Assembly (NCBI RefSeq): GCF_017094505.1
Contig: NZ_CP064787.1
Span: forward strand, 682,001 to 746,000
DNA: 64,000 nt
DNA from: Halapricum desulfuricans
GTDB taxonomy: Archaea; Halobacteriota; Halobacteria; Halobacteriales; Haloarculaceae
Direction: 5' to 3'
How positions within the stretch are numbered: position 1 is the stretch's first letter; the number at the start of each line of letters is the position of its first letter. The notes under the pieces are model-generated. The model saw nothing but the letters and a program-made list of their open reading frames with translations. It was not told the origin of the DNA and searched no databases. Position numbers and translations under genes: made by a program. This document shows, piece after piece, positions 2,946 through 40,371 of the stretch.

Positions 2946-3431
2946 TCATGTGTCACCGGCCAGCAACCGCTCGAAGGCCTCGCAGTTCTCGCTCGTTCCG
3001 GTGACGACGACGGTGTCGCCTTCCAGGAGTTCGGTCTCCGGACCGGGACTCTCGACGGTCTCGCCGCCGCGCTCGATCGCGACGACGCTCACGCCCGTCT
3101 TCCGGCCGACGTGTGCGTCTCCGATCGTCGTCCCCGCCAGCGGCGAGCCGGGCTGGATCTCGTACCACTCCAGCAAGATTCCGCCGGGGAGGGTCGTCTC
3201 TCGCTTCTCGGCCTCGACCGGCTGGAAGTACGCCCCCTCGAGGATCGTCCCGACGGTCCGCGCGAGGTCGTCGGACAGTTCGAACAGCTTCTGTGAATCG
3301 GTATCCGCGTCCGGGCGCTTGAAGACCTCCCGTTTGCCGGTGTTGTGCGTGACGATCACGAGTTGCTCCCCGTCGAGTTCGACGACGTGTTTCTTTCCCA
3401 CGCCGGGGAGTTCGCTCTCTTCGACGGTCAT
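2946..3431 (-). CDS. TrkA-C (KhtT-like) regulatory subunit of the antiporter
   Basis: This 161-residue soluble protein has an N-terminal domain that starts MTVEESELPGVGKK, followed by a TrkA-C (RCK-C) domain with the typical PGSPLAGTTIGD and LLEGDTVVVTG segments. Proteins of this layout (KhtT) gate a partner antiporter by binding a nucleotide or ion. The ATG at 3431 matches the conserved family start; the longer open frame upstream lacks family similarity. It is the first gene of a two-gene minus-strand operon, with 29 bases before the antiporter. Confidence 0.85.
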   Translation of the reverse strand: MTVEESELPGVGKKHVVELDGEQLVIVTHNTGKREVFKRPDADTDSQKLFELSDDLARTVGTILEGAYFQPVEAEKRETTLPGGILLEWYEIQPGSPLAGTTIGDAHVGRKTGVSVVAIERGGETVESPGPETELLEGDTVVVTGTSENCEAFERLLAGDT

Positions 3432-3531
3432 GGCTAGAGGCGTGGGGAAGTCAGCATAAAAAGACCCGGTCAACAACAGGACCGTCACCACCAGTGCGAC
3501 TGGCGTGATCGGGCTCACATGTGGTCGGGCC

Positions 3532-3545
3532 AAATAAAGATATAT
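3532..3545 (+). promoter_or_regulatory. TATA-like box before the LOV kinase
   Basis: An A/T-rich box (AAATAAAGATATAT) lies about 25 bases before the ATG at 3563, the spacing of a haloarchaeal TATA element for a leaderless transcript. This supports 3563 as the start over the upstream GTG at 3521. Confidence 0.5.
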
Positions 3546-3562
3546 CAGCAGTATACGCGAAC

Positions 3563-5761
3563 ATGCACACAATGGCTTCAGAAGCCGGCGAGGGGTATAT
3601 CTCTACGCTCGTCGTCACGGCCGACCGGGAGTTCGCCGCCACATGTCAGACTCAGCTCCCCTCACATGCCGATATCGACGTCACGATCGTCGAAACGGTC
3701 GGAAAAGCGATCGACGTCATCATCTCTCGTGACCGCCTCGACTGTATCATCAGCGACCACGACCTCCCGGACACCGACGGGATCGCGTTTCTCGAGGTCG
3801 TCAGAGCCCAGACACCAACGCTCCCGTTCGTCCTCTTTACCAGCCACGGGAGCGAGCAGGTCGCCAGTCGGGCGATTTCGGCCGACGTCACGGAGTATCT
3901 GATCAAGGAATCGCACGCCGATCAATGGGAACGTCTCGCGTCGCTGATCGAAGACGCCGTCGCCTATCACCGGAAGCACGGTGACCTCGTTGATCCCAGG
4001 ACTCGAGCACAGACACTTCTCGACGCGGTAGATGACGGGATCGTCGTGCTCAGGGACGGGCACGTCGAATACATAAACAGCCCGGGGACGGAGCTCATCG
4101 CAGCGAAGTCCCGGTCGTCGCTGATCGGGCAGGCCATTGGGGACATACTCGACGTCGAAGACAGTCGTTCGCTGTCCGATATCCTTGCTGTCATCCGACG
4201 ACGAGACCGATCGTTCGATCGTTTCAAAGCCCAGCTGGAGCGACGAGACGGGACGGTGTTGTCGGCCGAGATTACGGTTACAGCGGCTGAATGGACAGGG
4301 TCAGCCGCGACGATCCTGGTCGTTCGCGACGTCAGTGAACACGAGGAGCGCGAGCAGGACCTGTGGTTGAAGAACCGAGCGATGGACAACGCCCCCATCG
4401 GCATGACCATCGCTGACGCGGACAATCCGGACAGCCCGCTCATCTACGTCAACAAGCAATTCGAACAGCTAACAGGCTATTCGAAGGACGAAGTGCTGGG
4501 AGCCAATTGTCGCTTCCTGCAAGGCGTGGACACCGATCCAGCGGCGGTCCGGGAAATGCGCGACGCGATCGACGCTCGGGAGTCGGTCCGCGCCCAGATA
4601 CGCAACTATCGGAAAGACGGGACCGAATTCTGGAACCGGGTGACACTCGCCCCGATTCGAGCGACCGGCGGAGACGTGACCCACTACATCGGCTTTCAGG
4701 AGGACATCACCGAACAGGTCGTTCGTGAACGGCGACTGCGACAGTACGAATACGCGATCGAAAGTGCGAGCGACCTGATCGCGGCCGTCGACAAAGACTA
4801 CCAGTTCCTGTTCGCCAACCAGGCCTACCGTGACTTCTACGACCTCGATACGGACGAGGTGACGGACAAGACACTGCCGGAAGTCGTCGACACTGAGACG
4901 TGGGAGACGATTCAACCGTACGTCGATCGGAATTTCGTCGGCGAGCCGATTCAGTTCGAAATGACACGCTCGCGGCCCGATCAACCGACCCGAACGTTCG
5001 ACATCAGATATCACCCACTCGAGCAAGTGAACGAGGAGACCGTCGGAGCGATGGCGACGATGCGGGACATCACTGGCCAGCGAGAGCGTGAACGTCAGCT
5101 CGCGTCACTCGACAGGATGCTCCGGCACAACCTCCACAACGAACTGAACGTCATTACGGGACACGCAGAGATGATCGCTGAACGAACGTCCGGCGACGTC
5201 GCGGGGTGGGCCGGAGTCATCGATCGAGTCGCCGATCGCATCCTCGAACAGGTGGACAAGGAACGCGAAGTCGTCGACTTCCTCTCACAGCCGTCGACAC
5301 CGGCGGCGATCGACGTCAGCGAGACGGTCGACAGTGTGGTCGATCGGCTGGAGACGCGCCACCCGGACGCCGAAATCTCCGACAACGTGCCCGGTGATCT
5401 GCAGGTGCTGACACTGCCCGAACTCGAACGAGCACTCGAAGAACTGGTCGAAAACGCCGTCGTTCACAACGACAGAGCGCCGATCACGGTTGCGGTGTCT
5501 GCCGCCACCAGCGAAACGGCGGTGACGCTCACCGTCGAGGACAACGGCCCCGGCATCCCGGACGAGGAGCGGCGCGTGATTGTCGACGATGCGGACATCG
5601 AACCGCTGTTGCACAGCAACGGAATGGGGCTGTGGCTCGTCAAGCGAATCGTCACTCGCGCCGGTGGCACGATCCAGTTCGATACCGGCGACACTGGCGG
5701 AAGTCGCGTGACGCTCGTCGTCCCTCGGGGAGAGCCAAACAGCCGCACACGACGAGGGTGA
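3563..5761 (+). CDS. Sensor histidine kinase: receiver, PAS, LOV, PAS, kinase
   Basis: The 732-residue soluble protein starts with a receiver domain whose likely phosphoacceptor is D65 (motif SDHDLPDTDG). A PAS domain follows, then a second PAS domain with the LOV signature GANCRFLQG and its flavin-reactive cysteine at C316. Other LOV marks are present: the NYRKDG and FWN segments and a glutamine in IGFQEDIT. A third PAS domain leads to the kinase core, with H522 in MLRHNLHNEL, an N-box VENAVVHN, and ATP-lid boxes EDNGPGIP and GMGLWLVK. LOV domains bind flavin and sense blue light. Output probably goes to another regulator, as no DNA-binding domain is present. The ATG at 3572 is another possible start. 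Confidence 0.88.
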   Translation: MHTMASEAGEGYISTLVVTADREFAATCQTQLPSHADIDVTIVETVGKAIDVIISRDRLDCIISDHDLPDTDGIAFLEVVRAQTPTLPFVLFTSHGSEQVASRAISADVTEYLIKESHADQWERLASLIEDAVAYHRKHGDLVDPRTRAQTLLDAVDDGIVVLRDGHVEYINSPGTELIAAKSRSSLIGQAIGDILDVEDSRSLSDILAVIRRRDRSFDRFKAQLERRDGTVLSAEITVTAAEWTGSAATILVVRDVSEHEEREQDLWLKNRAMDNAPIGMTIADADNPDSPLIYVNKQFEQLTGYSKDEVLGANCRFLQGVDTDPAAVREMRDAIDARESVRAQIRNYRKDGTEFWNRVTLAPIRATGGDVTHYIGFQEDITEQVVRERRLRQYEYAIESASDLIAAVDKDYQFLFANQAYRDFYDLDTDEVTDKTLPEVVDTETWETIQPYVDRNFVGEPIQFEMTRSRPDQPTRTFDIRYHPLEQVNEETVGAMATMRDITGQRERERQLASLDRMLRHNLHNELNVITGHAEMIAERTSGDVAGWAGVIDRVADRILEQVDKEREVVDFLSQPSTPAAIDVSETVDSVVDRLETRHPDAEISDNVPGDLQVLTLPELERALEELVENAVVHNDRAPITVAVSAATSETAVTLTVEDNGPGIPDEERRVIVDDADIEPLLHSNGMGLWLVKRIVTRAGGTIQFDTGDTGGSRVTLVVPRGEPNSRTRRG

Positions 5762-31406: not shown

Positions 31407-31488
31407 GAGACACCCCACCGTGTCGAGTGTTCGTATGTGAGGAAGTGGCCGATACCGCACAGACACCCCACCGTGTCGAATGTTCTGG
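31407..31488 (+). repeat. Two copies of the 53-bp origin-like repeat
   Basis: The core ACACCCCACCGTGTCGA occurs at 31410 and at 31463, 53 bases apart, each followed by (A/G)TGTTC. Between them is a spacer containing AGTGGCCGATACCGCAC. The same unit recurs three times at 32427-32555 and inverted at 35545-35689. The copies lie just upstream of the epimerase gene. Confidence 0.9.
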
Positions 31489-31496
31489 CACAAATT

Positions 31497-31862
31497 TCAC
31501 TCGAGGAGATCACGCCACTGATCGAGCCAGACACGTTCACCGGCCAGCTCCTCTGGAGAGTAAAATTCGAGGATCCGCTCGATCAAGCGTACCGCGTCTG
31601 CCGGTGCTTCCCGCAGGAACACCGGATCGGTATAGATGACGATTCCAGCGTGATCGACTGCGTTGCTGAATTCGCTTGTAAAATCTTTCTTATCATTCGT
31701 GATGAAGATGTGGTCGTTTGCTGCACAATATTCGAGAAGGTCTCGATCGTTCGTTCCTTCGCCAAACTCGGCAGTGGCCGTTCGGACGGGATAGCCATTG
31801 GAGCGCACCGACGTTACAAACACACTAGGAACGTGCTCGTCGGCAAGAAACGACACCGTCAC
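31497..31862 (-). CDS. DUF5615/PIN-like toxin of a toxin-antitoxin pair
   Basis: The protein (121 residues) starts MTVSFLADEHVPSVFV, where the acidic LADEH lies in the place of a PIN-type active-site Asp/Glu. It contains ITNDKKDF and ends in a short helical tail. This matches the DUF5615 PIN-like family, ribonuclease-type toxins. Its start overlaps the preceding DUF433 stop by four bases (ATGA). The pair sits between origin-like repeats, where it would stabilise a replicon. Confidence 0.85.
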   Translation of the reverse strand: MTVSFLADEHVPSVFVTSVRSNGYPVRTATAEFGEGTNDRDLLEYCAANDHIFITNDKKDFTSEFSNAVDHAGIVIYTDPVFLREAPADAVRLIERILEFYSPEELAGERVWLDQWRDLLE

Positions 31863-32137
31863 TGGACTAGTTCGGGGGGTTGCAGCGCGTCTGTCGCAAG
31901 TGTCGATTCGGTTTCGGATCGCTCCTGCCGAAGGGTGCGCATCTCTTCGACGTGTTCGTAGTAGTACGCGAGCGCGGTGTAGATATCGCCCAGCGATCGG
32001 TCGAGCTGATCGGCCACATCGGCCGGCGAATAGCCCCCCTCCACGACCAACTCGTAGACGTCAATCACACCGACTCTTGAGCCCTCGATCCGGGGTTCTC
32101 CCCCGAGGACGTCGTCCGTCCGAACAATACTGCTCAT
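31859..32137 (-). CDS. DUF433 antitoxin-like protein
   Basis: At 92 residues this matches DUF433: SSIVRTDDVLGGEPRIEGSR, then GVIDVYELVVEGGYSPADVADQLDRS, which reads as a helix-turn-helix, and YYYEHVEEM. Antitoxins of this family bind the DUF5615 toxin and their own promoter. A TATA-like TATTTAAA at 32163-32170 lies about 29 bases before the ATG, so the pair has its own promoter. Confidence 0.85.
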   Translation of the reverse strand: MSSIVRTDDVLGGEPRIEGSRVGVIDVYELVVEGGYSPADVADQLDRSLGDIYTALAYYYEHVEEMRTLRQERSETESTLATDALQPPELVQ

Positions 32138-32162
32138 CGTGACTAGTGATTGTCCGTGTCGC

Positions 32163-32170
32163 TATTTAAA
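32163..32170 (-). promoter_or_regulatory. TATA-like box of the toxin-antitoxin operon
   Basis: On the minus strand, TTTAAATA lies about 29 bases before the DUF433 start at 32137. The antitoxin probably represses this promoter. Confidence 0.45.
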
Positions 32171-32247
32171 CGTTCGTCGGGGGGTGTCATCGATGCGCTG
32201 CTGGCCAATCCGGTGTCTTCTTGGTCAGGGACGGATTGTCGGCGTAT

Positions 32248-32361
32248 ATGCGCATTCTTCGGGTTGCCCAGAAACTCTATCCCGAGGTCCCCGGCGGCGG
32301 GACCTATCACGTCCACGCGATGAAGCCCGCACAGCCGTGGGGAACACCTGCCTGCGAGTAG
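32248..32361 (+). pseudogene. 5' fragment of a GT4 glycosyltransferase gene
   Basis: The frame from the ATG at 32248 reads MRILRVAQKLYPEVPGGGTY and HVHAM, the standard start of haloarchaeal GT4 glycosyltransferases. It then changes to unrelated codons (KPAQPWGTPACE) and stops at 32361 after 37 codons. The break is at about 32322, where sequence similar to the epimerase start begins on the other strand. So only the first 25 codons of the glycosyltransferase remain. Confidence 0.7.
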
Positions 32362-32430
32362 GTGACAGGGGCGAGGAGCGTTGTGTCTCTTCCCATCAAG
32401 CAGATGAGGATCGAAACCGCGGGTGAGAAC
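32322..32430 (-). pseudogene. Degraded copy of an epimerase 5' end and leader
   Basis: On the minus strand this reads HGCAGFIA, like the TGGAGFIG start of the intact epimerase. The bases that follow match the flank of that gene (a GCGTTGTGTCTCT block and a CGCGGGTGAGA block). The order is the same as at 31300-31411: gene start, leader, then the 53-bp repeats. It is a diverged duplicate without a usable gene. Confidence 0.45.
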
Positions 32431-32555
32431 CCCACTGTGTCGAATGTTCGTACATAAGTGAGTGGCCGATACTTCACAGACACCCCACCGTGTCGAATGT
32501 TTGTATATACGTGAGTGGCCGATGCCACACAGACACCCCCACTGTGTCGAATGTT
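32427..32555 (+). repeat. Three copies of the 53-bp origin-like repeat
   Basis: Copies of CACCCCAC(C/T)GTGTCGAATGTT lie with the CGAATGTT word at 32441, 32494 and 32548, spaced by 53 and 54 bases. Each is joined by a GAGTGGCCGAT spacer. The last copy has one extra C. They precede the orc1 start by about 190 bases. Confidence 0.9.
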
Positions 32556-32822
32556 TTCTTGCATTGTCAGCACCTCTAACGCTGAAGTAACCACAATTCG
32601 AGCCAATTTGGATCTTCTCAGACCGCGTCAAGCGCTCTGAGTACCGTCTCGTTACCCCACCGGAGGTCAGATCATCCAATACATACGACACACTTGACTC
32701 GGTGGTTTTATGATTGCTGAGATTTCAAATAGAAATATCGAATGACGACATTCAGTCGTGACAATGAGATATTCCGCGACGAAGAGATGCTACGGGAAGA
32801 TTACGGATAATCGAGGAGAAAG

Positions 32823-32842
32823 CCTCGCGCTTCAGCGCGGGG
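32823..32842 (+). repeat. Left-end hairpin of the TnpB element
   Basis: CCTCGCGCTTCAGCGCGGGG folds into an 8-bp stem with one G-T pair and a TTCA loop. The identical 20 bases occur at the right end. Such subterminal hairpins are the recognition structures of TnpA in this family. Confidence 0.75.
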
Positions 32843-32900
32843 ATGAATCCGACGCGACATTCAATAAACCACCAGACAGAGCCTCCTTGTAATCCATACG

Positions 32901-32916
32901 TTTATATTAATATATA
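32901..32916 (+). promoter_or_regulatory. TATA-like promoter of tnpB
   Basis: A run TTTATATTAATATATA lies about 20 bases before the GTG start of tnpB, fitting a leaderless transcript. Confidence 0.5.
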
Positions 32917-32930
32917 CTGTATCTTGACGT

Positions 32931-34331
32931 GTGAGCGACCGGCCGCAACGAACGAACACGTACACTGCCGAGCCGGTCAGTGACCGGTATCGGGAGTGCC
33001 TGTTCGACTGGCTGGCCGCACACGCCCCACTTTGGAACCAAATCACCTACCGTCGCCGTCAACAATACTTCGACGAAAACGGTGATGTCTGGGACGCCGA
33101 GTACACCGACCTCTACGAACAGTACGCCCCAATCCTCGGCAAAGCGACCTGCCAGCAAATCGCCCGGAAAAACAGCGAAGCCTGGCGCAGCCACTTCGAG
33201 TTGCTTTCGCAATATCGAGATGGATCGAATCACGCTGTGACGGAGCAACCGTCACCACCCGGGTATTGGGGCAATCGTGACGAGGGCTACGACTTGCACG
33301 GCCTCGTTCGGAACGATCTCTACACATTCGACTGGAATGAGAAAACGAGTACACTCGAATTCGGCGTCGGTGATGTCCTCGAAGAGCGCTATGATTTCGA
33401 GCACAACGAACGCGTGACGCTCGAAGTGCGTGGTAATCCACACTGGCGTGGCGACGACAGTCGATTGGAGCTCATCTACGATGAGCACGCTGCGAGGCTT
33501 CGTGTCCAGCACCCAGTCCGCATTCAGTCAGACGATCTCCGTGAACAGCGGCAGGCTGCATTCACTCATACACTCGATTCCGAGAACACGACCCACTCAG
33601 CAGCTATCGACGTCGGCGCAAACAACACCCTAGCGGTCGTCACCGAAGATGGCGACACCGCCGTCTACCACGCTCGCCCGGAATTTGACCGGTTCCAGCA
33701 ACAGTCCGAGCGAATCGCAACACTCCAATCGGAACTCCCGGACGACCAGTACACCAGCAACCAGATTCGACGCGTGTACGACGAGCGGTCACGACAGCGT
33801 GATCATAGCCGCGATGCCGCGGTCAAACACGCCGCTGAGTGGCTCCTCGAACGGAACGTTGACACAGTGTACGTCGGTGATTTGACCGGCGTACTAGAGA
33901 CGCACTGGTCGGCTACCGTGAACGAGAAGACCCACGCGTTCTGGTCACATCGGCAACTCGTTGACCGAATCACACTCACACTCGGTGATGTCGGTATCAC
34001 GGTGATGGAGACTGATGAATACGATTCAAGTAGTGAGTGTCCCGAGTGTGGGAGCGACGACGTCGTTCGGGATGGCGACGAGTTCCAGTGTCAGGGTTGT
34101 GGGTTGAATGCTCATAGTGACGTGGCGGGGGCGTGGAATATGTTGCAGTCTGAAGTTGGGCCGATGGCTCGGCCTGCTGCCCTGTCTGCTGAACGCGGCA
34201 GGGACGCACCCACGGATGGGGCGTACTGGCAGTGGAATGACCACAACTGGACACCCGCCGATTGTGGGAAACAGTCGTGGTCGCTCGACCAACCCAGCCA
34301 CAGTGAACCCGCAAGTTCACAGCCGGGGTAA
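32931..34331 (+). CDS. tnpB: TnpB RNA-guided nuclease-like protein
   Basis: The 466-residue protein matches haloarchaeal TnpB (IS1341 type). RuvC-I is AIDVGANNTLAVV with D227, the zinc ribbon has C370, C373, C387 and C390, and RuvC-III is HSDVAGAWNM with D397. In RuvC-II, TnpB usually has Glu in a VxEDL motif; here it reads VYVGDLTGV, so the glutamate is a glycine (G316) followed by Asp. It may be inactive or may use a displaced acidic residue. TnpB uses RNA from the element's right end as guide. The start is GTG at 32931. Confidence 0.9.
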   Translation: MSDRPQRTNTYTAEPVSDRYRECLFDWLAAHAPLWNQITYRRRQQYFDENGDVWDAEYTDLYEQYAPILGKATCQQIARKNSEAWRSHFELLSQYRDGSNHAVTEQPSPPGYWGNRDEGYDLHGLVRNDLYTFDWNEKTSTLEFGVGDVLEERYDFEHNERVTLEVRGNPHWRGDDSRLELIYDEHAARLRVQHPVRIQSDDLREQRQAAFTHTLDSENTTHSAAIDVGANNTLAVVTEDGDTAVYHARPEFDRFQQQSERIATLQSELPDDQYTSNQIRRVYDERSRQRDHSRDAAVKHAAEWLLERNVDTVYVGDLTGVLETHWSATVNEKTHAFWSHRQLVDRITLTLGDVGITVMETDEYDSSSECPECGSDDVVRDGDEFQCQGCGLNAHSDVAGAWNMLQSEVGPMARPAALSAERGRDAPTDGAYWQWNDHNWTPADCGKQSWSLDQPSHSEPASSQPG

Positions 34332-34390
34332 TCGTCTGACTGGATTACCCACGGAGGAATCCTCGCGCTTCAGCGCGGGGAGGAAGTCAA
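34332..34390 (+). ncRNA. Predicted 3' part of the TnpB guide RNA (reRNA/omegaRNA) scaffold
   Basis: After the tnpB stop, the sequence has GGATTACCCACGGAGGAAT, then the hairpin CCTCGCGCTTCAGCGCGGGG at 34361-34380, and the right end AGGAAGTCAA. In this family the guide RNA overlaps the tnpB 3' end, ends in this scaffold, and continues into the flank as guide. The guide here would start CAGCCCGAATC in orc1. The 5' boundary is not visible. Confidence 0.55.
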
Positions 34391-35544
34391 CAGCCCGAAT
34401 CAATCACTGCACGGGAGGAGGAACTGGAGGCGTACAAGACTGCGCTTCAACCAGTCGTCAATGGGGCCCAGCCCCGGAACATCTTCCTGTATGGGAAGAC
34501 TGGTGTCGGAAAAACTGCCGTGTCACGGTATCTCCTCGAACGATTACGGCAGGACACGGCGCAATTCGATGACGTGAATCTCTCGGTCTACTGGCTCAAC
34601 TGTACGAACCTCTCATCATCGTATCAGGTTGCGGTCAATCTGGTCAATACGATCCGCCCGCCCGAGGAACGCATCAGCACGACTGGCTATCCACAGCAGC
34701 GCGTCTTCGATATCCTGTATGAAGAGTTGGAGGCGATCGGTGGCACGATTCTCCTCGTGTTTGATGAGATTGACCACATCGGGAGCGACGACGAGATCCT
34801 CTATGAACTGCCTCGGGCCCGGTCGAACGGCTATCTCGATTCAGCGAAGCCTGGCGTCATCGGGATCAGCAACGACTTCGGGTTCCGTGACGACTTGTCC
34901 CCGAAAGTAAAGGATACGCTCTGTGAGGAAGCGATTCACTTTCCGCCGTATGATGCGCCGGAACTCAAGGCGATTCTGCGCCAGCGCGCCGATGGGGCGC
35001 TCCACGAAGACGGTGCCGAGCAGGGGGTCATCCCGCTGTGTGCCGCACTCGCTGCGCAGGACACGGGGAGCGCTCGACAGGCACTGAAGCTTCTGTACAA
35101 GGCGGGTGAGCTCGCCCGAGCCGCCGGGGAATCGGCAATCACAGAGGACCACGTCCACGATGCGCGCTCAGAGCTTGAACAGAGTCAGATCGAACACGGA
35201 ATGCGGGAACTGACCCAACACGGCCATCTGTCGCTCGTGGCCGCACTGCAGCTCGCGCTTGACGAAGACACGCCGGCACGAGTCCGCGAGATCTATCCGC
35301 GGTATCGAACGCTCGCCGAACAGTCCTCAATCGATCCGCTCGTTCGTCGGCGGATGCACGACCATCTGGCTGATCTCGCCATGCTCGGTATTTTGGAACG
35401 GCACTCCCGAAACGAGGGACGCGCCGGCAGCCAGTACTACGAATACGAGTTCAACGTCGCTCTCGGACTCGTCTGCAAGGTCGTCAGTGAACTGGACAGT
35501 GTCGTGGTCCCCGACCGCGTCACCAGGCAGTTGTAGTCGGAGCA

Positions 35545-35689
35545 GAACACTTGACAGGGTGGGGTGTGAGTGTCGATGGAGAGCATATGCGGGTGGATCG
35601 TTGCTTACTCGATCGCTGTTTCAGGAGCGTTCTCGACAGTGAACACCCCGTTCGACCGCGGGAGAACATTCGACGCGGTGGGGTGTGAG
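35545..35689 (-). repeat. Two inverted copies of the origin-like repeat
   Basis: At 35545-35569 and 35664-35689 the repeat core occurs on the minus strand: TCACACCCCACCCTGTCAA and CTCACACCCCACCGCGTCGA, each with a following (A/G)TGTTC. They lie directly after the orc1 stop and face the upstream array. The 227 bases to the ABC gene hold nothing else I can support. Confidence 0.85.
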
Positions 35690-35916
35690 GGGCGCGAAAT
35701 TCGCGATCCACTGCGGTCCAGCGCGTTCCTGTTCGATCCTTTGGGAACACACGCTTGTGCGGCCGTCATGAAACGCTAGGCTCCCAGCGGCGAAACCGAT
35801 CATACTCGCTCGACCAGACGGACGTGGACGGGGGTTGACGAACGGATTGAGAGTGGCTTTCGTCGTCGATCGAAGGACCAACGAGTATAAACTCCGAGAG
35901 CAGAATCCATCTATCA

Positions 35917-37722
35917 ATGAGTGACACCGAGGACATCGGTCGGCGCGAGCAACTCCGGGCGCTGCTCCGGGTTGCCCGATACCGGCCGCGCCTCACCGCA
36001 CTGATCATCGTCGGTGGGATCTTCGCAGCGCTACTCGAGGGTGTCGGCCTCGGGTTCATCCTGCCGATCGTCGAGATCGTGCAATCGCCCGGCGACCCGG
36101 CCCAGCAGGCCGACGGCATCATGCTGGCGTTCGTTCGTGCTTACGAGTTCCTTGGAATTCCGTTTACACTGGGCTCGGTTATCGTCGGCGTGAGTGCCGT
36201 GCTGACCGTCCGGTGGACGCTGACGTTCTTCGTGCGGTGGATGCGGAGCGCGCTTTCGATTGATTATACGCGATATTTGCAGCGAGAGTCATTCGATCAC
36301 GCGCTCGACGCGCAGATTGAGTACTTCGATCAGGAGGGATCTGACGACATCCTGAACGCGATCGTTACGCAGGCAGAGTACGCGGGGCGGACAATTCGGT
36401 TCGTGATCAATCTTATAGAACAGGGATTCCTGACGTTGATGTACCTCCTAGTCGCGCTAGTAGTTGCACCATCTCTCACGCTCTTTGCACTGGTGTTCCT
36501 CGGCGGTATCGCCGTGTTGTTCCGCTACATTGTGGAGCCAGGGTACGCACTCGGTGATGAGGTAGCGGACGCGAACGAGCGCATTCAACAGGCTGCTCAG
36601 GCGGGGACACAGGGGATACGTGATACCAAGCTGTTCGGGCTGAAGAATGAACTCTTCGAGGACTTTACAGATGCGGTAAATCGGTACGCCAGTTCGAGTA
36701 TCAAGATGCGACGCAATGAGCAGGCGATCCAGAATTTTTACAATCTCCTGACTGCAGTATCGGTATTTGTGCTGATTTATGTTGCGCTCAGGTTCGCGAA
36801 CCTCTCACTCGGGGCACTTGGTGTATTCTTATTTTCAATGTTTCGACTGGGTCCAAAAGCAAGTTCCTTAAACTCAAAATTATATCGTATCGAAAATAAT
36901 ATTCCTCACCTAGTTCGTACACAAATTTTTATTGAGGATCTCAAACAGAACTCCGAGCCAAAACAAGGTTCAGAACCGGTACCCGAAGAGATCCAGACAG
37001 TGGAGTTCAACGATGTACATTTCTCATATACAGGGCAAGAAGATGAGGCACTTTCTGGTATTTCTTTCAAGCTCAGAAAAGGCGAATTCATCGGGTTCGT
37101 TGGTGAGTCTGGTGCTGGAAAATCAACTATTATAGCACTCCTAGCTAGGATGTATGAGCCAGACAGGGGAAGAATCCAAGCCAATCGATGTTCAATACAC
37201 AAGATGTCTATCAACGGATGGCGCGCACGCATTGCGGTGGTTCGCCAGGACCCATTTATTTTTAATAATACATTAAAATACAACCTGACTATTGGCCGGC
37301 GCAATGTGTCAAAAGAAAGGCTTGATAAGGTAGCCAGAATTGCCAAGATTAATGAGTTTTTTGATGAACTTCCGGATGGATATGAGACACAGCTTGGTGA
37401 CAATGGTGTTCGGCTGTCCGGTGGCCAGAGACAGCGTGTTTCACTTGCGAGGGCACTGTTAAAGGACGCAGATATTCTGGTACTCGATGAGGCCACAAGC
37501 AACTTAGATTCGAACTTAGAAAAGCAAGTAAAGTCATCTATTGAAAATATGGGGCAGGAATATACGATCGTCGGTATCGCACATCGACTTTCAACGGTCA
37601 AAAACGCTGATCGAATCTACTCAGTCAGTGATGGAGAGATTGTTGAGACAGGTCAACATTCTGAGTTGATTGATCAGAACGGCCCATATGCTGAACTCTA
37701 TACGATCCAATCGAAAGAGTGA
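35917..37722 (+). CDS. ABC transporter (fused membrane and ATPase domains), flippase-like
   Basis: The 601-residue protein has about six membrane helices (residues 25-320), then an ABC domain: Walker A GESGAGKST (about 395), signature LSGGQRQR, Walker B DILVLDEATS and H-loop AHRLST. It belongs to the MsbA/PglK class of half-transporters, which flip lipid-linked glycans. The first 800 bases are GC-rich like the surroundings, but from about 36800 on the DNA is AT-rich and A/T is favoured at third positions. The gene may be a recombinant. It precedes a GT2 gene. Confidence 0.88.
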   Translation: MSDTEDIGRREQLRALLRVARYRPRLTALIIVGGIFAALLEGVGLGFILPIVEIVQSPGDPAQQADGIMLAFVRAYEFLGIPFTLGSVIVGVSAVLTVRWTLTFFVRWMRSALSIDYTRYLQRESFDHALDAQIEYFDQEGSDDILNAIVTQAEYAGRTIRFVINLIEQGFLTLMYLLVALVVAPSLTLFALVFLGGIAVLFRYIVEPGYALGDEVADANERIQQAAQAGTQGIRDTKLFGLKNELFEDFTDAVNRYASSSIKMRRNEQAIQNFYNLLTAVSVFVLIYVALRFANLSLGALGVFLFSMFRLGPKASSLNSKLYRIENNIPHLVRTQIFIEDLKQNSEPKQGSEPVPEEIQTVEFNDVHFSYTGQEDEALSGISFKLRKGEFIGFVGESGAGKSTIIALLARMYEPDRGRIQANRCSIHKMSINGWRARIAVVRQDPFIFNNTLKYNLTIGRRNVSKERLDKVARIAKINEFFDELPDGYETQLGDNGVRLSGGQRQRVSLARALLKDADILVLDEATSNLDSNLEKQVKSSIENMGQEYTIVGIAHRLSTVKNADRIYSVSDGEIVETGQHSELIDQNGPYAELYTIQSKE

Positions 37723-37869
37723 GTTATATACTAGGAGGTATCCACCACTGTGTCTCAAGAACACCACCATTTCTGATAGAAATCGCAACTAATAAATTAT
37801 GAATAAGCTTAGAGCGGCGTGGGCTGAAAAAGCATATTAACCTGCCCGACTAGCCACTGACTGAGAGAG

Positions 37870-38736
37870 ATGAAAATATCTCTGGTGGTCCCTACATACA
37901 ATCGAATAAATTTTTTGGATAGTTTAATATCTTCTTTAGAGTGTGCAAATGAGGAGTTTGAGTTAATAATAGTTGATGATGCGTCAGACACAGAAGTAAA
38001 GAGGGTCGTCTCCAGGCATAAACTCGGAAAGTACGTTGCAGGCGAGGGGAAAGGAGCAATGTATGCAAGACAAAGGGGAGTAGAACATGCAGATGGCGAT
38101 ATTATTGGATTTCTGGAAGATGATATGACTGTTGATCCAAACTTTCTTAAGCCAATAATAAATTCATTCAAAAGAGGAGAGAATATAGTCCAATCAAGAT
38201 TAATTGAACAAGATAAAAGAATTACGGACTTCCCAAAAAGCATCTATAGATGGAACTTTGAACACAGTACAAATTTCAATGCAAAAAATAAAAAATATAT
38301 ATCTGTGTGCCAAGAGTCTGGTTTATTCGTCTCGGCGGAGATCTTAGATTCCTACCCAGTACTAAATTCTGACCTTGTCGGAGACTATGGATCTTCAATA
38401 GATTTTTCTTTGAGAGTTCGTTCATCGGGTAGAGATATCCTTTTCAATCCCAATTCTAAAATATATCATCACAAAGCTGAATTTGGAGGAACTATTGAAA
38501 TGAATGAGAAGTCAAGAGCGAGATCCGAAGAAGATATTCAGTGTTCTAACTTTTACAAGGAGTATTATCATAACCTGACATACATCCACTCAAAATATTT
38601 TAAAAGATATTTATTATTTTCAATTTTATATCATATAATCAAAATAATGGCACGAGCAATAAAATATCGTGAAGCACAATGTGTTTCAGTGTGTGTCACA
38701 GGCATGATTATTGGGCTAAATAAAGGGATAAGGTAG
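37870..38736 (+). CDS. GT2 family glycosyltransferase
   Basis: The 288-residue protein starts MKISLVVPTYNRINFLDSLI, a GT-A fold start, with LEDDMTVDPNFL as the metal-binding DxD-type motif and a GDYGSSIDFSLRVRSSG acceptor segment. It transfers a sugar from a nucleotide donor to a growing glycan. The gene is AT-rich, unlike most of the window, and its C-terminus is basic and hydrophobic, suggesting membrane contact. Confidence 0.85.
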   Translation: MKISLVVPTYNRINFLDSLISSLECANEEFELIIVDDASDTEVKRVVSRHKLGKYVAGEGKGAMYARQRGVEHADGDIIGFLEDDMTVDPNFLKPIINSFKRGENIVQSRLIEQDKRITDFPKSIYRWNFEHSTNFNAKNKKYISVCQESGLFVSAEILDSYPVLNSDLVGDYGSSIDFSLRVRSSGRDILFNPNSKIYHHKAEFGGTIEMNEKSRARSEEDIQCSNFYKEYYHNLTYIHSKYFKRYLLFSILYHIIKIMARAIKYREAQCVSVCVTGMIIGLNKGIR

Positions 38737-39063
38737 AATTGAGACGCAAGTGCAGCTCACAAAGGCCTTCGAGGAGAGATCAGAGATGTTCAAAAGCGCT
38801 GTCTTATATATAGTTAAAATTCATAAGTATCAAATTTTGTGTAGTATATTTATTTACCAAAGGTCTGGCCGAGACGTACAGCCAGTATTGCTCGTTACCA
38901 AGCAAATCACAGTTTCGTCACTGTGAGCAATCTGAAGCGGTTCCAGCATCCGAATTAACTACCAACACCATCCAGATAAGGTCAAAGCGAACTCACAAAT
39001 TCAGAGTCAAGCCTACCGTAAGTTCCCAGATATTATATAAGTGCATTCGCTCTTCTATAGGGC
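38737..39063. other. AT-rich gap between convergent genes
   Basis: The 327 bases hold no supported gene, RNA or obvious repeat. The A/T content is as high as in the flanking genes. Confidence 0.5.
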
Positions 39064-40371
39064 TTAACGGTATCCCAGGTCTTTTAGCTGGGCAATAGTT
39101 CCTTCACTGATATTTTTCCCACCACTAGTTTCGCAATAATCTATATTTAATTTATTAATTACATTTGAAATTGTTTGATTGCTACTTTCTGCTTGCTGGG
39201 TGGCTTCCTCCTTTCCTTCATAGTTTTGGAACAAATACCCTCCGTCTGAAAGTGTAACTCCCTGCCTCGAGCGATCCCATTTAGATAATTCTTTCTCAGT
39301 CATATTTGATTCTAAGAGCTGCTTCCGGAATGCCTCCGCAAGTCCATTACACTCTGTCAAATAATGCTCTTCGGAAGACTCATTCAATAAATCTTTTCCT
39401 CGAGATTCTTTGGTAATCCCAGCTAAATTCAGAATTGTCGGATATATTTCTAATAAACTACGGTTAGGGGACTCATTCCTATTTTTTAACTCAGGTCCAC
39501 TAATACATAATGGGACATGGACCAATTCTGGCGGGACACCCAACATATGTCTGATTAAATTATTTCTTTCACCAAATAGCTCACCATGATCAGAAAGAGT
39601 GAATATGTAGTCAAAATCTCTAGCCAAAGTATTGTATATTTTTTTATACTGTTTTGATAGGAATTTTATAGAATTTGTATAAGCTTCTTTTTGCGCTGTT
39701 ATCTCTCTAGAGCTGTAGCCACCCATTCTCTCGGATATAGATGGCTCTTGATACCCCACCGTTTGGAATTCCTTAGGTGGCGTATAGGGAGCATGCGCAT
39801 CCATGATATTTATGTAGAGGAATTCATTCTCCGAGAAGTCTATTCTTTTGAGTATATTTTGTACTTCGATACTACTATAGATATTGTTTAATTTCAAATC
39901 AATCCCAAATTTTAGCGATTTAGCTGTATTCGAGTCGGACCTAATACATTTATACATCAATTGTATATCACGAGACAGACCAGATCTCGTTGATTTTCGT
40001 ATTTCTGAAGCCCAATCAAATATTTCTGGCCTAGATGATCGAGTTCGTCCCGCCCGATAGAAAGAATCAAAACCGCGGTCAAAATTAAACTCGGGTGAAA
40101 CAAGCGGATTTGCACTAATGGCCGTAGTTCGGAATCCGTGAGAAGTCAGTATTTCAGCAATTGTCCGTCTATCTGTGGCCAAATCTTTGGATCTAGAATT
40201 AACTCCTAATTCGCTAGGATATAATCCGCAGAACATCGCCGCATGTGCGGTCGAGGTGAATCGCCCTGGAGACCAAACATTTTCGAACTTAATTCCTGGT
40301 AACCAATCGAAATACTCATCAAATGAATCCTTTCGAAGCGTGTCTAAGGTGACTATTGCGATGTTCGTCAT
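39064..40371 (-). CDS. Sulfatase-like (alkaline phosphatase superfamily) protein
   Basis: The 435-residue protein starts MTNIAIVTLDTLRKDSFDEY (metal-binding Asp) and carries a LSDHGELFGE metal motif and an ATDRRTIAEILTSHGF segment. The nucleophile region reads SPGRFTSTAHAAMFCGLYP, where a canonical sulfatase would have C/S-x-P-x-R with a formylglycine precursor. The nearest fit is a Ser/Thr, so it may be a phosphotransferase or phosphodiesterase instead. It has no signal peptide. The gene is AT-rich and within the glycan cluster. Confidence 0.8.
   Translation of the reverse strand: MTNIAIVTLDTLRKDSFDEYFDWLPGIKFENVWSPGRFTSTAHAAMFCGLYPSELGVNSRSKDLATDRRTIAEILTSHGFRTTAISANPLVSPEFNFDRGFDSFYRAGRTRSSRPEIFDWASEIRKSTRSGLSRDIQLMYKCIRSDSNTAKSLKFGIDLKLNNIYSSIEVQNILKRIDFSENEFLYINIMDAHAPYTPPKEFQTVGYQEPSISERMGGYSSREITAQKEAYTNSIKFLSKQYKKIYNTLARDFDYIFTLSDHGELFGERNNLIRHMLGVPPELVHVPLCISGPELKNRNESPNRSLLEIYPTILNLAGITKESRGKDLLNESSEEHYLTECNGLAEAFRKQLLESNMTEKELSKWDRSRQGVTLSDGGYLFQNYEGKEEATQQAESSNQTISNVINKLNIDYCETSGGKNISEGTIAQLKDLGYR

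What the first reader, a model, noticed from the sequence alone, without database searches (positions are those of the whole stretch)
32742..35536. An orc1/cdc6 initiator gene is cut by a TnpB element with exact ends
The first 21 codons (32742-32804) and the remaining 381 codons plus stop (34391-35536) join in frame to a 402-aa Orc1/Cdc6 without other damage. The junction is TTAC at the left and TCAA at the right, with no target duplication. This is what IS608-like elements do, and it means that precise excision would restore the initiator.
Basis: partly seen in the sequence, partly recalled or inferred. Interest (0 to 1): 0.75.

Follow-up and report, generated by a model that had tools for sequence, protein, structure and literature searches.

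The report
TnpB transposon inside an origin's initiator
In a salt-loving archaeon a small mobile element carrying an RNA-guided nuclease sits exactly inside the gene for the starter protein of one replication origin, so that origin is probably silenced while the element carries a guide that could cut any restored copy of the gene; each part is of a known kind, but the combination is a clean natural experiment.

Summary
Joining 32804 to 34391 gives a 402-aa Orc1/Cdc6, and seven uninterrupted homologues read LREDYQP(E/D)SITARE straight across the join. The insert (32805-34390, 1,586 bp) is a TnpB-only IS200/IS605 element: relatives with an intact left end have TTAC before it, all 26 end in TCAA, and the IS608 guide tetranucleotides AAAG and GAAT are present.

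A whole origin/initiator unit was hit, probably an acquired one beside polysaccharide genes. (2) The only TnpA in the assembly belongs to an element with different ends, so excision needs a TnpA from elsewhere. (3) The predicted guide (CAGCCCGAATCAATCA, TAM TTAC) matches the empty orc1, so TnpB would oppose restoration, if it cuts: this clade lacks the canonical RuvC-II glutamate and has an invariant Glu363 instead. The insertion looks recent.

A second, partial case at the same codon occurs in another genome, but a rough estimate puts that within chance. New member of a known kind; moderate interest.

The parts
32742..32804 (+). 5' part of orc1/cdc6 (codons 1-21, ...LREDY)
   Evidence: identical reading frame and residues in uninterrupted homologues
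32801..32804 (+). TTAC: left cleavage site (CL) of the element and predicted TnpB TAM; codons of Asp20-Tyr21 (GAT TAC)
   Evidence: TTAC precedes the left end in 13 of 13 relatives with an alignable left end
32805..34390 (+). TnpB-only IS200/IS605 element, 1,586 bp
   Evidence: 97.6% identical over its whole length to an element on a 180,725-bp Halapricum desulfuricans plasmid with other flanks
32819..32822 (+). AAAG, left guide (GL), at +15 to +18 of the element, directly 5' of the left hairpin
   Evidence: IS608 GL is AAAG (PMC5934647)
32823..32842 (+). left-end hairpin CCTCGCGC-TTCA-GCGCGGGG
   Evidence: sequence; present in relatives
32931..34331 (+). TnpB, 466 aa (OrfB_IS605 PF01385 and Cas12f1-like TNB PF07282)
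   Evidence: Foldseek of an AF2 model matches Cas12f and TnpB complexes, E 7e-17 to 2e-10, global TM-scores low
34193..34390 (+). predicted omegaRNA scaffold overlapping the end of tnpB
   Evidence: Rfam sot0042 (34193-34381) and HgcC (34237-34403) at E 1e-3, both below gathering score; structure conserved in 26 relatives, terminal hairpin with 5 covarying pairs
34357..34360 (+). GAAT, right guide (GR), directly 5' of the right hairpin
   Evidence: invariant in 26 relatives; IS608 GR is GAAT
34361..34380 (+). right-end hairpin CCTCGCGC-TTCA-GCGCGGGG
34387..34390 (+). TCAA, right cleavage site and end of the element
   Evidence: 26 of 26 relatives
34391..34410 (+). predicted TnpB guide segment CAGCCCGAATCAATCACTGC = orc1 codons 22-28
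   Evidence: position as in known omegaRNAs (inference); no other TTAC+guide site within 3 mismatches in the genome
34391..35536 (+). 3' part of orc1/cdc6 (codons 22-402 and stop): AAA ATPase, Cdc6 lid, winged helix
31411..31431 (+). ORB-like repeat, 1 mismatch to CACCCCACNGTGTCGAATGTT
31464..31484 (+). ORB-like repeat, exact
32428..32448 (+). ORB-like repeat, 1 mismatch
32481..32501 (+). ORB-like repeat, exact
32535..32555 (+). ORB-like repeat, 2 mismatches
35546..35566 (-). inverted ORB-like repeat, 3 mismatches
35665..35685 (-). inverted ORB-like repeat, 1 mismatch

Best explanation
An acquired orc1/cdc6-plus-ORB origin unit of a Halapricum chromosome was recently hit by a TnpB-only IS200/IS605 element. 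The single-strand transposition machinery (a TnpA from elsewhere) put the element 3' of the TTAC made by the Asp-Tyr codons 20-21, without duplication. The initiator lost its start and Walker A from one frame, so this origin should be silent unless another Orc1 can serve it, and the chromosome relies on its other origins. The omegaRNA made from the right end now carries orc1 codons 22-27 as guide, so TnpB should cut any chromosome copy (haloarchaea are polyploid) or incoming molecule that holds the empty TTAC|CAGCCCGAATCAATCA allele and have it refilled by recombination. Shown: the boundaries, the ends, the intact rest of orc1, the repeats, the homologues, the absence of a matching TnpA. Inferred: origin silence, omegaRNA processing, cutting of the empty allele.
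For: Exact junction against uninterrupted homologues. TTAC/TCAA ends with AAAG/GAAT guides in all comparable relatives, matching the IS608 values in PMC5934647. Conserved, covarying right-end structure and weak Rfam matches to omegaRNA-type families (sotRNAs are described as omegaRNAs in PMC12558985). ORB-like repeats: 7 in the genome, all here, 0 in controls, in the same inverted layout at eight homologues and absent at the 60% paralogue. Haloarchaeal origins depend on the co-located cdc6 gene (PMC3936714). Acquired: no homologue of this subfamily in five genomes of the same genus, one on pR1SE2, polysaccharide or ABC-transporter neighbours at several homologues, as reported for acquired haloarchaeal origins (PMC3528665). 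Recent: terminal branch 0.10, like functional homologues (0.10-0.13), dN not raised, no other lesion.
Against: No reads or strains: fixation, transcription and cutting are untested. TnpB of this clade has Gly316 where canonical TnpB/Cas12f has the RuvC-II glutamate, so nuclease activity rests on the guess that the invariant Glu363 replaces it. The ORBs are identified by sequence only. No matching TnpA in this assembly.
Confidence: 0.8

Rival explanations
1. The element is a switch: precise excision restores the initiator in part of the population, so origin use is phase-variable.
For: Excision at TTAC/TCAA would restore the exact frame; the orc1 sequence outside the insert is undamaged and not evolving faster.
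Against: No TnpA with matching ends in the assembly; the guide would direct TnpB against the restored allele; absence of decay is equally expected from a recent insertion.
Confidence: 0.08
2. The insertion is inert: this clade's TnpB has lost nuclease activity (or acts as an RNA-guided repressor), and the element stays only because nothing removes it.
For: Canonical RuvC-II Glu is Gly in the whole clade; single copy in this genome apart from a 71% scar at 1339112.
Against: The clade is widespread (234 of 391 genomes at E<=1e-60 with the broader group) with intact frames, conserved ends and scaffold; RuvC-I Asp227, RuvC-III Asp397 and a clade-specific invariant Glu363 are kept, which fits a moved rather than a lost active site.
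Confidence: 0.2
3. The orc1 codon Asp-Tyr|Gln-Pro is a hot spot that these elements enter again and again, as homing elements use conserved genes.
For: In genome G300 another TnpB-type right end abuts an orc1 at the same codon, CAACCGGAAGAG = QPEE; the conserved DYQP can supply TTAC.
Against: Only 2 of 391 genomes. About 2.7 TCAA right ends per genome, one TTAC per about 1,300 strand-bases and one or two such TTAC sites in orc1 genes per genome give a rough expectation of a few tenths, so one further case is not beyond chance. The left half in G300 was not found. Clade members show no TTAC|C preference (4 of 27).
Confidence: 0.08
4. The interrupted frame is spliced or read around at RNA level (IStron-like), so the initiator is still made.
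For: Exact ends in frame; IStrons join TnpB elements with self-splicing introns (own knowledge).
Against: No intron family in an Rfam scan of 32000-36000 even at E<=1; stop codons in the insert and no start codon before Walker A downstream.
Confidence: 0.02

Closest known systems
IS608 (IS605 group of IS200/IS605; Helicobacter pylori)
   Same: TTAC left and TCAA right cleavage sites, AAAG and GAAT guides 5' of the end hairpins, no target duplication
   Different: No tnpA in the element; no preference for C after TTAC (4 of 27)
IS1341-type TnpB-only elements and their omegaRNAs (haloarchaeal sotRNAs, Rfam RF02656 sot0042; HgcC RF00062)
   Same: Lone tnpB with a right-end RNA that overlaps the gene's end; omegaRNAs with expression evidence in Halobacterium (PMC12558985)
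   Different: Rfam scores stay below the gathering cut-off; TnpB clade with Gly at the canonical RuvC-II Glu
TnpB-driven retention and gene drive of IS200/IS605 elements (PMC11870625)
   Same: Guide equals the flank of the insertion, so the empty allele is the target; a multicopy replicon setting is expected here too
   Different: Here the target is a replication initiator gene on a chromosome; activity untested
orc/cdc6-adjacent haloarchaeal origins, acquired and deficient or dormant ones (PMC3528665, PMC4595724)
   Same: orc1 with inverted ORB-like repeats, patchy distribution, polysaccharide-gene surroundings
   Different: Here the deficiency has a visible cause, an exact TnpB insertion in the initiator

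Membership tests
IS200/IS605 superfamily, IS608-type ends | insertion 3' of TTAC, right end TCAA, no target duplication | tested here: met
IS200/IS605 superfamily, IS608-type ends | subterminal hairpins with AAAG and GAAT guides at their 5' foot | tested here: met
IS200/IS605 superfamily, IS608-type ends | own Y1 TnpA (autonomous IS608) | tested here: not met
   only one Y1_Tnp in the genome, in another element with other ends; hence a TnpB-only (IS1341-type) member, not an autonomous IS608
IS200/IS605 superfamily, IS608-type ends | preference for C after TTAC | tested here: not met
   +1 base C in 4 of 27 copies; a preference of IS608 itself, not a defining feature of the superfamily
TnpB RNA-guided nucleases | OrfB/RuvC fold with TNB zinc ribbon | tested here: met
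TnpB RNA-guided nucleases | RuvC catalytic D-E-D at canonical places | tested here: inconclusive
   Asp227 and Asp397 kept, canonical Glu is Gly316 clade-wide, invariant Glu363 as possible substitute
TnpB RNA-guided nucleases | omegaRNA at the right end, guide from the flank | tested here: inconclusive
   structure conserved and covarying, Rfam matches below gathering score; no RNA data
TnpB RNA-guided nucleases | cleavage of a TAM-flanked target | not testable with these tools
   needs an assay
Orc1/Cdc6 initiators | AAA ATPase, Cdc6 lid, C-terminal winged helix, Walker A/B | tested here: met
   GKTGVGKTA and LLVFDEID in the joined frame
orc1-adjacent haloarchaeal replication origin | inverted ORB repeats on both sides of orc1 | tested here: met
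   (by sequence only)
orc1-adjacent haloarchaeal replication origin | replication initiates there | not testable with these tools
   GC skew of the 64-kb window shows no clear switch at 32-36 kb, which is not informative
IStron (TnpB with group I intron) | intron structure inside the element | tested here: not met

The most novel reading that the evidence does not exclude
The element works as a gene drive against one class of replication initiator: having destroyed the cell's own copy, it uses the orc1 guide to convert all chromosome copies and to cut incoming replicons with the same initiator allele, so a TnpB insertion becomes an incompatibility or plasmid-exclusion device directed at an origin family.
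Probability: 0.08. Interest if true: 0.7.

Novelty: new member of a known kind. Interest (0 to 1): 0.38.

Why it matters
It ties two lines of work that rarely meet: acquired, often dormant haloarchaeal origins, and TnpB retention. One locus offers an exact empty/filled comparison, an origin with a known cause of deficiency, and a predicted guide against a conserved initiator in a lineage whose studied members are polyploid, where spread of a TnpB element across chromosome copies can be measured. It also shows that a widespread haloarchaeal TnpB clade with exact, mobile-looking ends lacks the canonical RuvC-II glutamate.

Tried and rejected
Hot spot at DY|QP: found one further case (G300) but a rough expectation does not exclude chance; its left half was sought twice and not found. 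Viral contigs: no exact match to the orc1-plus-TCAA pattern, and three unexamined matches to a shorter one. Guide against the orc1 paralogue or other sites in the genome: no TTAC site within 3 mismatches; the paralogue has CTAC and 6 mismatches in 16. Guide against homologues of this subfamily: 1-5 mismatches in 16, nearly all at third codon positions, and TAM TTAC in only 5 of 9, so broad exclusion of this origin family is unlikely. IS608's TTAC|C preference as explanation of the site: not seen in the clade. The resident TnpA as mobiliser: its element has other ends. IStron: no intron. GC skew for origin activity: not informative. Literature for the moved RuvC-II glutamate: nothing found in the held library; my recollection that rearranged TnpB active sites have been described was not verified.

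Full report
What is there. The finding holds to the base. orc1/cdc6 begins at ATG 32742; codons 1-21 end in GAT TAC at 32804; the frame resumes with CAG CCC GAA at 34391 and runs to 35536. Joined, it is 402 aa without a stop. Six genome homologues and one on plasmid pR1SE2 are uninterrupted, 401-402 aa, 74-85% identical, with LREDYQP(E/D)SITARE across the join.

The insert. 32805-34390 (1,586 bp) holds one gene, tnpB (32931-34331, 466 aa; PF01385 and PF07282). Twenty-six related elements from 391 genomes of the class were compared. All end in GTCAA followed by unrelated DNA. All 13 whose left end aligns are preceded by TTAC; five more show TTAC by eye; the rest have lost the left end. AAAG stands at +15 to +18 before the left hairpin and GAAT 34 nt from the right end before the right hairpin. 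These are the IS608 cleavage sites (TTAC, TCAA) and guides (AAAG, GAAT) as given in PMC5934647. The right-end RNA structure is conserved; five pairs of the terminal hairpin change on both sides in 2 to 11 sequences each. The same hairpin is also the DNA substrate of TnpA, so this covariation does not by itself prove an RNA. Rfam's sot0042 and HgcC match there at E about 1e-3, below their gathering scores. The nearest copy (97.6% over 1,586 bp) lies on a 180,725-bp plasmid of Halapricum desulfuricans; a genome of the window's genus, G005, has a contig of the same length, so the window's genus is most probably Halapricum.

The target is an origin unit. CACCCCACNGTGTCGAATGTT-like repeats lie upstream on + (31411, 31464, 32428, 32481, 32535) and downstream on - (35546, 35665); none is expected by chance, and the whole genome has only these seven. 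The same repeats in the same inverted layout flank the homologues L016-L022 and pR1SE2, but not the 60% paralogue of the own genome. This is the anatomy of orc/cdc6-adjacent haloarchaeal origins (PMC3528665). In Haloarcula hispanica each origin depends on its co-located cdc6 (PMC3936714). Inference: this origin is silent unless another Orc1 reads its repeats. The main initiator near the start of the contig and others are present, so viability is no puzzle.

Acquired unit. None of five same-genus genomes holds a homologue of this subfamily. One lies on plasmid pR1SE2 of Halorubrum lacusprofundi next to an ABC transporter. The window's orc1 lies between sugar-nucleotide genes and an ABC transporter and glycosyltransferase; several homologues have an epimerase, nucleotidyltransferase or ABC-transporter gene within reach. 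PMC3528665 reports species-specific Haloarcula origins within acquired polysaccharide regions. The Haloarcula mannanilytica copy (L022) is itself broken by a TGA at codon 29 and a frameshift.

Age. The window's orc1 has a terminal branch of 0.10 against 0.10-0.13 for functional single-row homologues, no raised dN, and no other lesion. Synonymous sites are saturated, so this only says that decay has not begun.

How it most likely works. A TnpA from elsewhere inserted the element; the only Y1 TnpA in the assembly belongs to an element with different ends. TnpB with its right-end RNA would use orc1 codons 22-27 as guide and TTAC as TAM. No other site in the genome fits within three mismatches. 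Any empty allele would be cut and refilled from a filled copy; several haloarchaea are polyploid with efficient gene conversion between copies (PMC4056108, PMC8223754), and TnpB-driven spread through multicopy plasmids is described in PMC11870625.

A caution on the nuclease. Aligned with Cas12f and with other TnpBs, the clade has Gly316 where the RuvC-II glutamate belongs. Asp227 and Asp397 are invariant, and Glu363 is invariant in 30 of 30 clade members where five of six other TnpBs of this genome have Pro; the sixth (L003) also lacks the canonical Glu and also has a Glu there. A moved active site is the likelier reading, but it is inference.

Recurrence. In G300 another TnpB-type right end abuts a different orc1 at the same codon; 2 of 391 genomes in all. 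From about 2.7 TCAA right ends per genome and one TTAC per about 1,300 strand-bases, a few tenths of a case are expected by chance. I do not claim a hot spot.

Verdict.

Noticed in passing
window 32931-34331; L056-L084: TnpB clade with Gly at the canonical RuvC-II Glu and a clade-specific invariant Glu363; L003 of the same genome shows the same pair of changes. Possible rearranged active site in a widespread haloarchaeal TnpB group.
   Followed up: partly
L114/L126 (G300:C474:1-1600): Another orc1 whose 3' part directly follows a different TnpB right end (TCAA) at the same codon; the contig begins inside the element, the left half was not found.
   Followed up: partly
L022 (Haloarcula mannanilytica, NZ_BIXZ01000004.1), 3001-4207: The homologue of this orc1 carries TGA at codon 29 and a frameshift while its ORB-like repeats remain: a second, independently broken initiator of this family.
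   Followed up: partly
window 31497-32137 (-): DUF5615 (PIN-like) and DUF433 pair, probably a toxin-antitoxin module, between the outer and inner ORB-like repeats; a DUF433 gene also lies near two homologues (L018, L019).
   Followed up: partly
L002 (G000:C1:1339112-1339309): Remnant of the C-terminal end of a related TnpB (71% over 62 aa), probably the scar of an older element.
   Followed up: no
window 36001-40000: G+C falls to 37-48% over the ABC transporter and glycosyltransferase beside orc1, against 60-69% in most of the window: likely recent foreign DNA.
   Followed up: no
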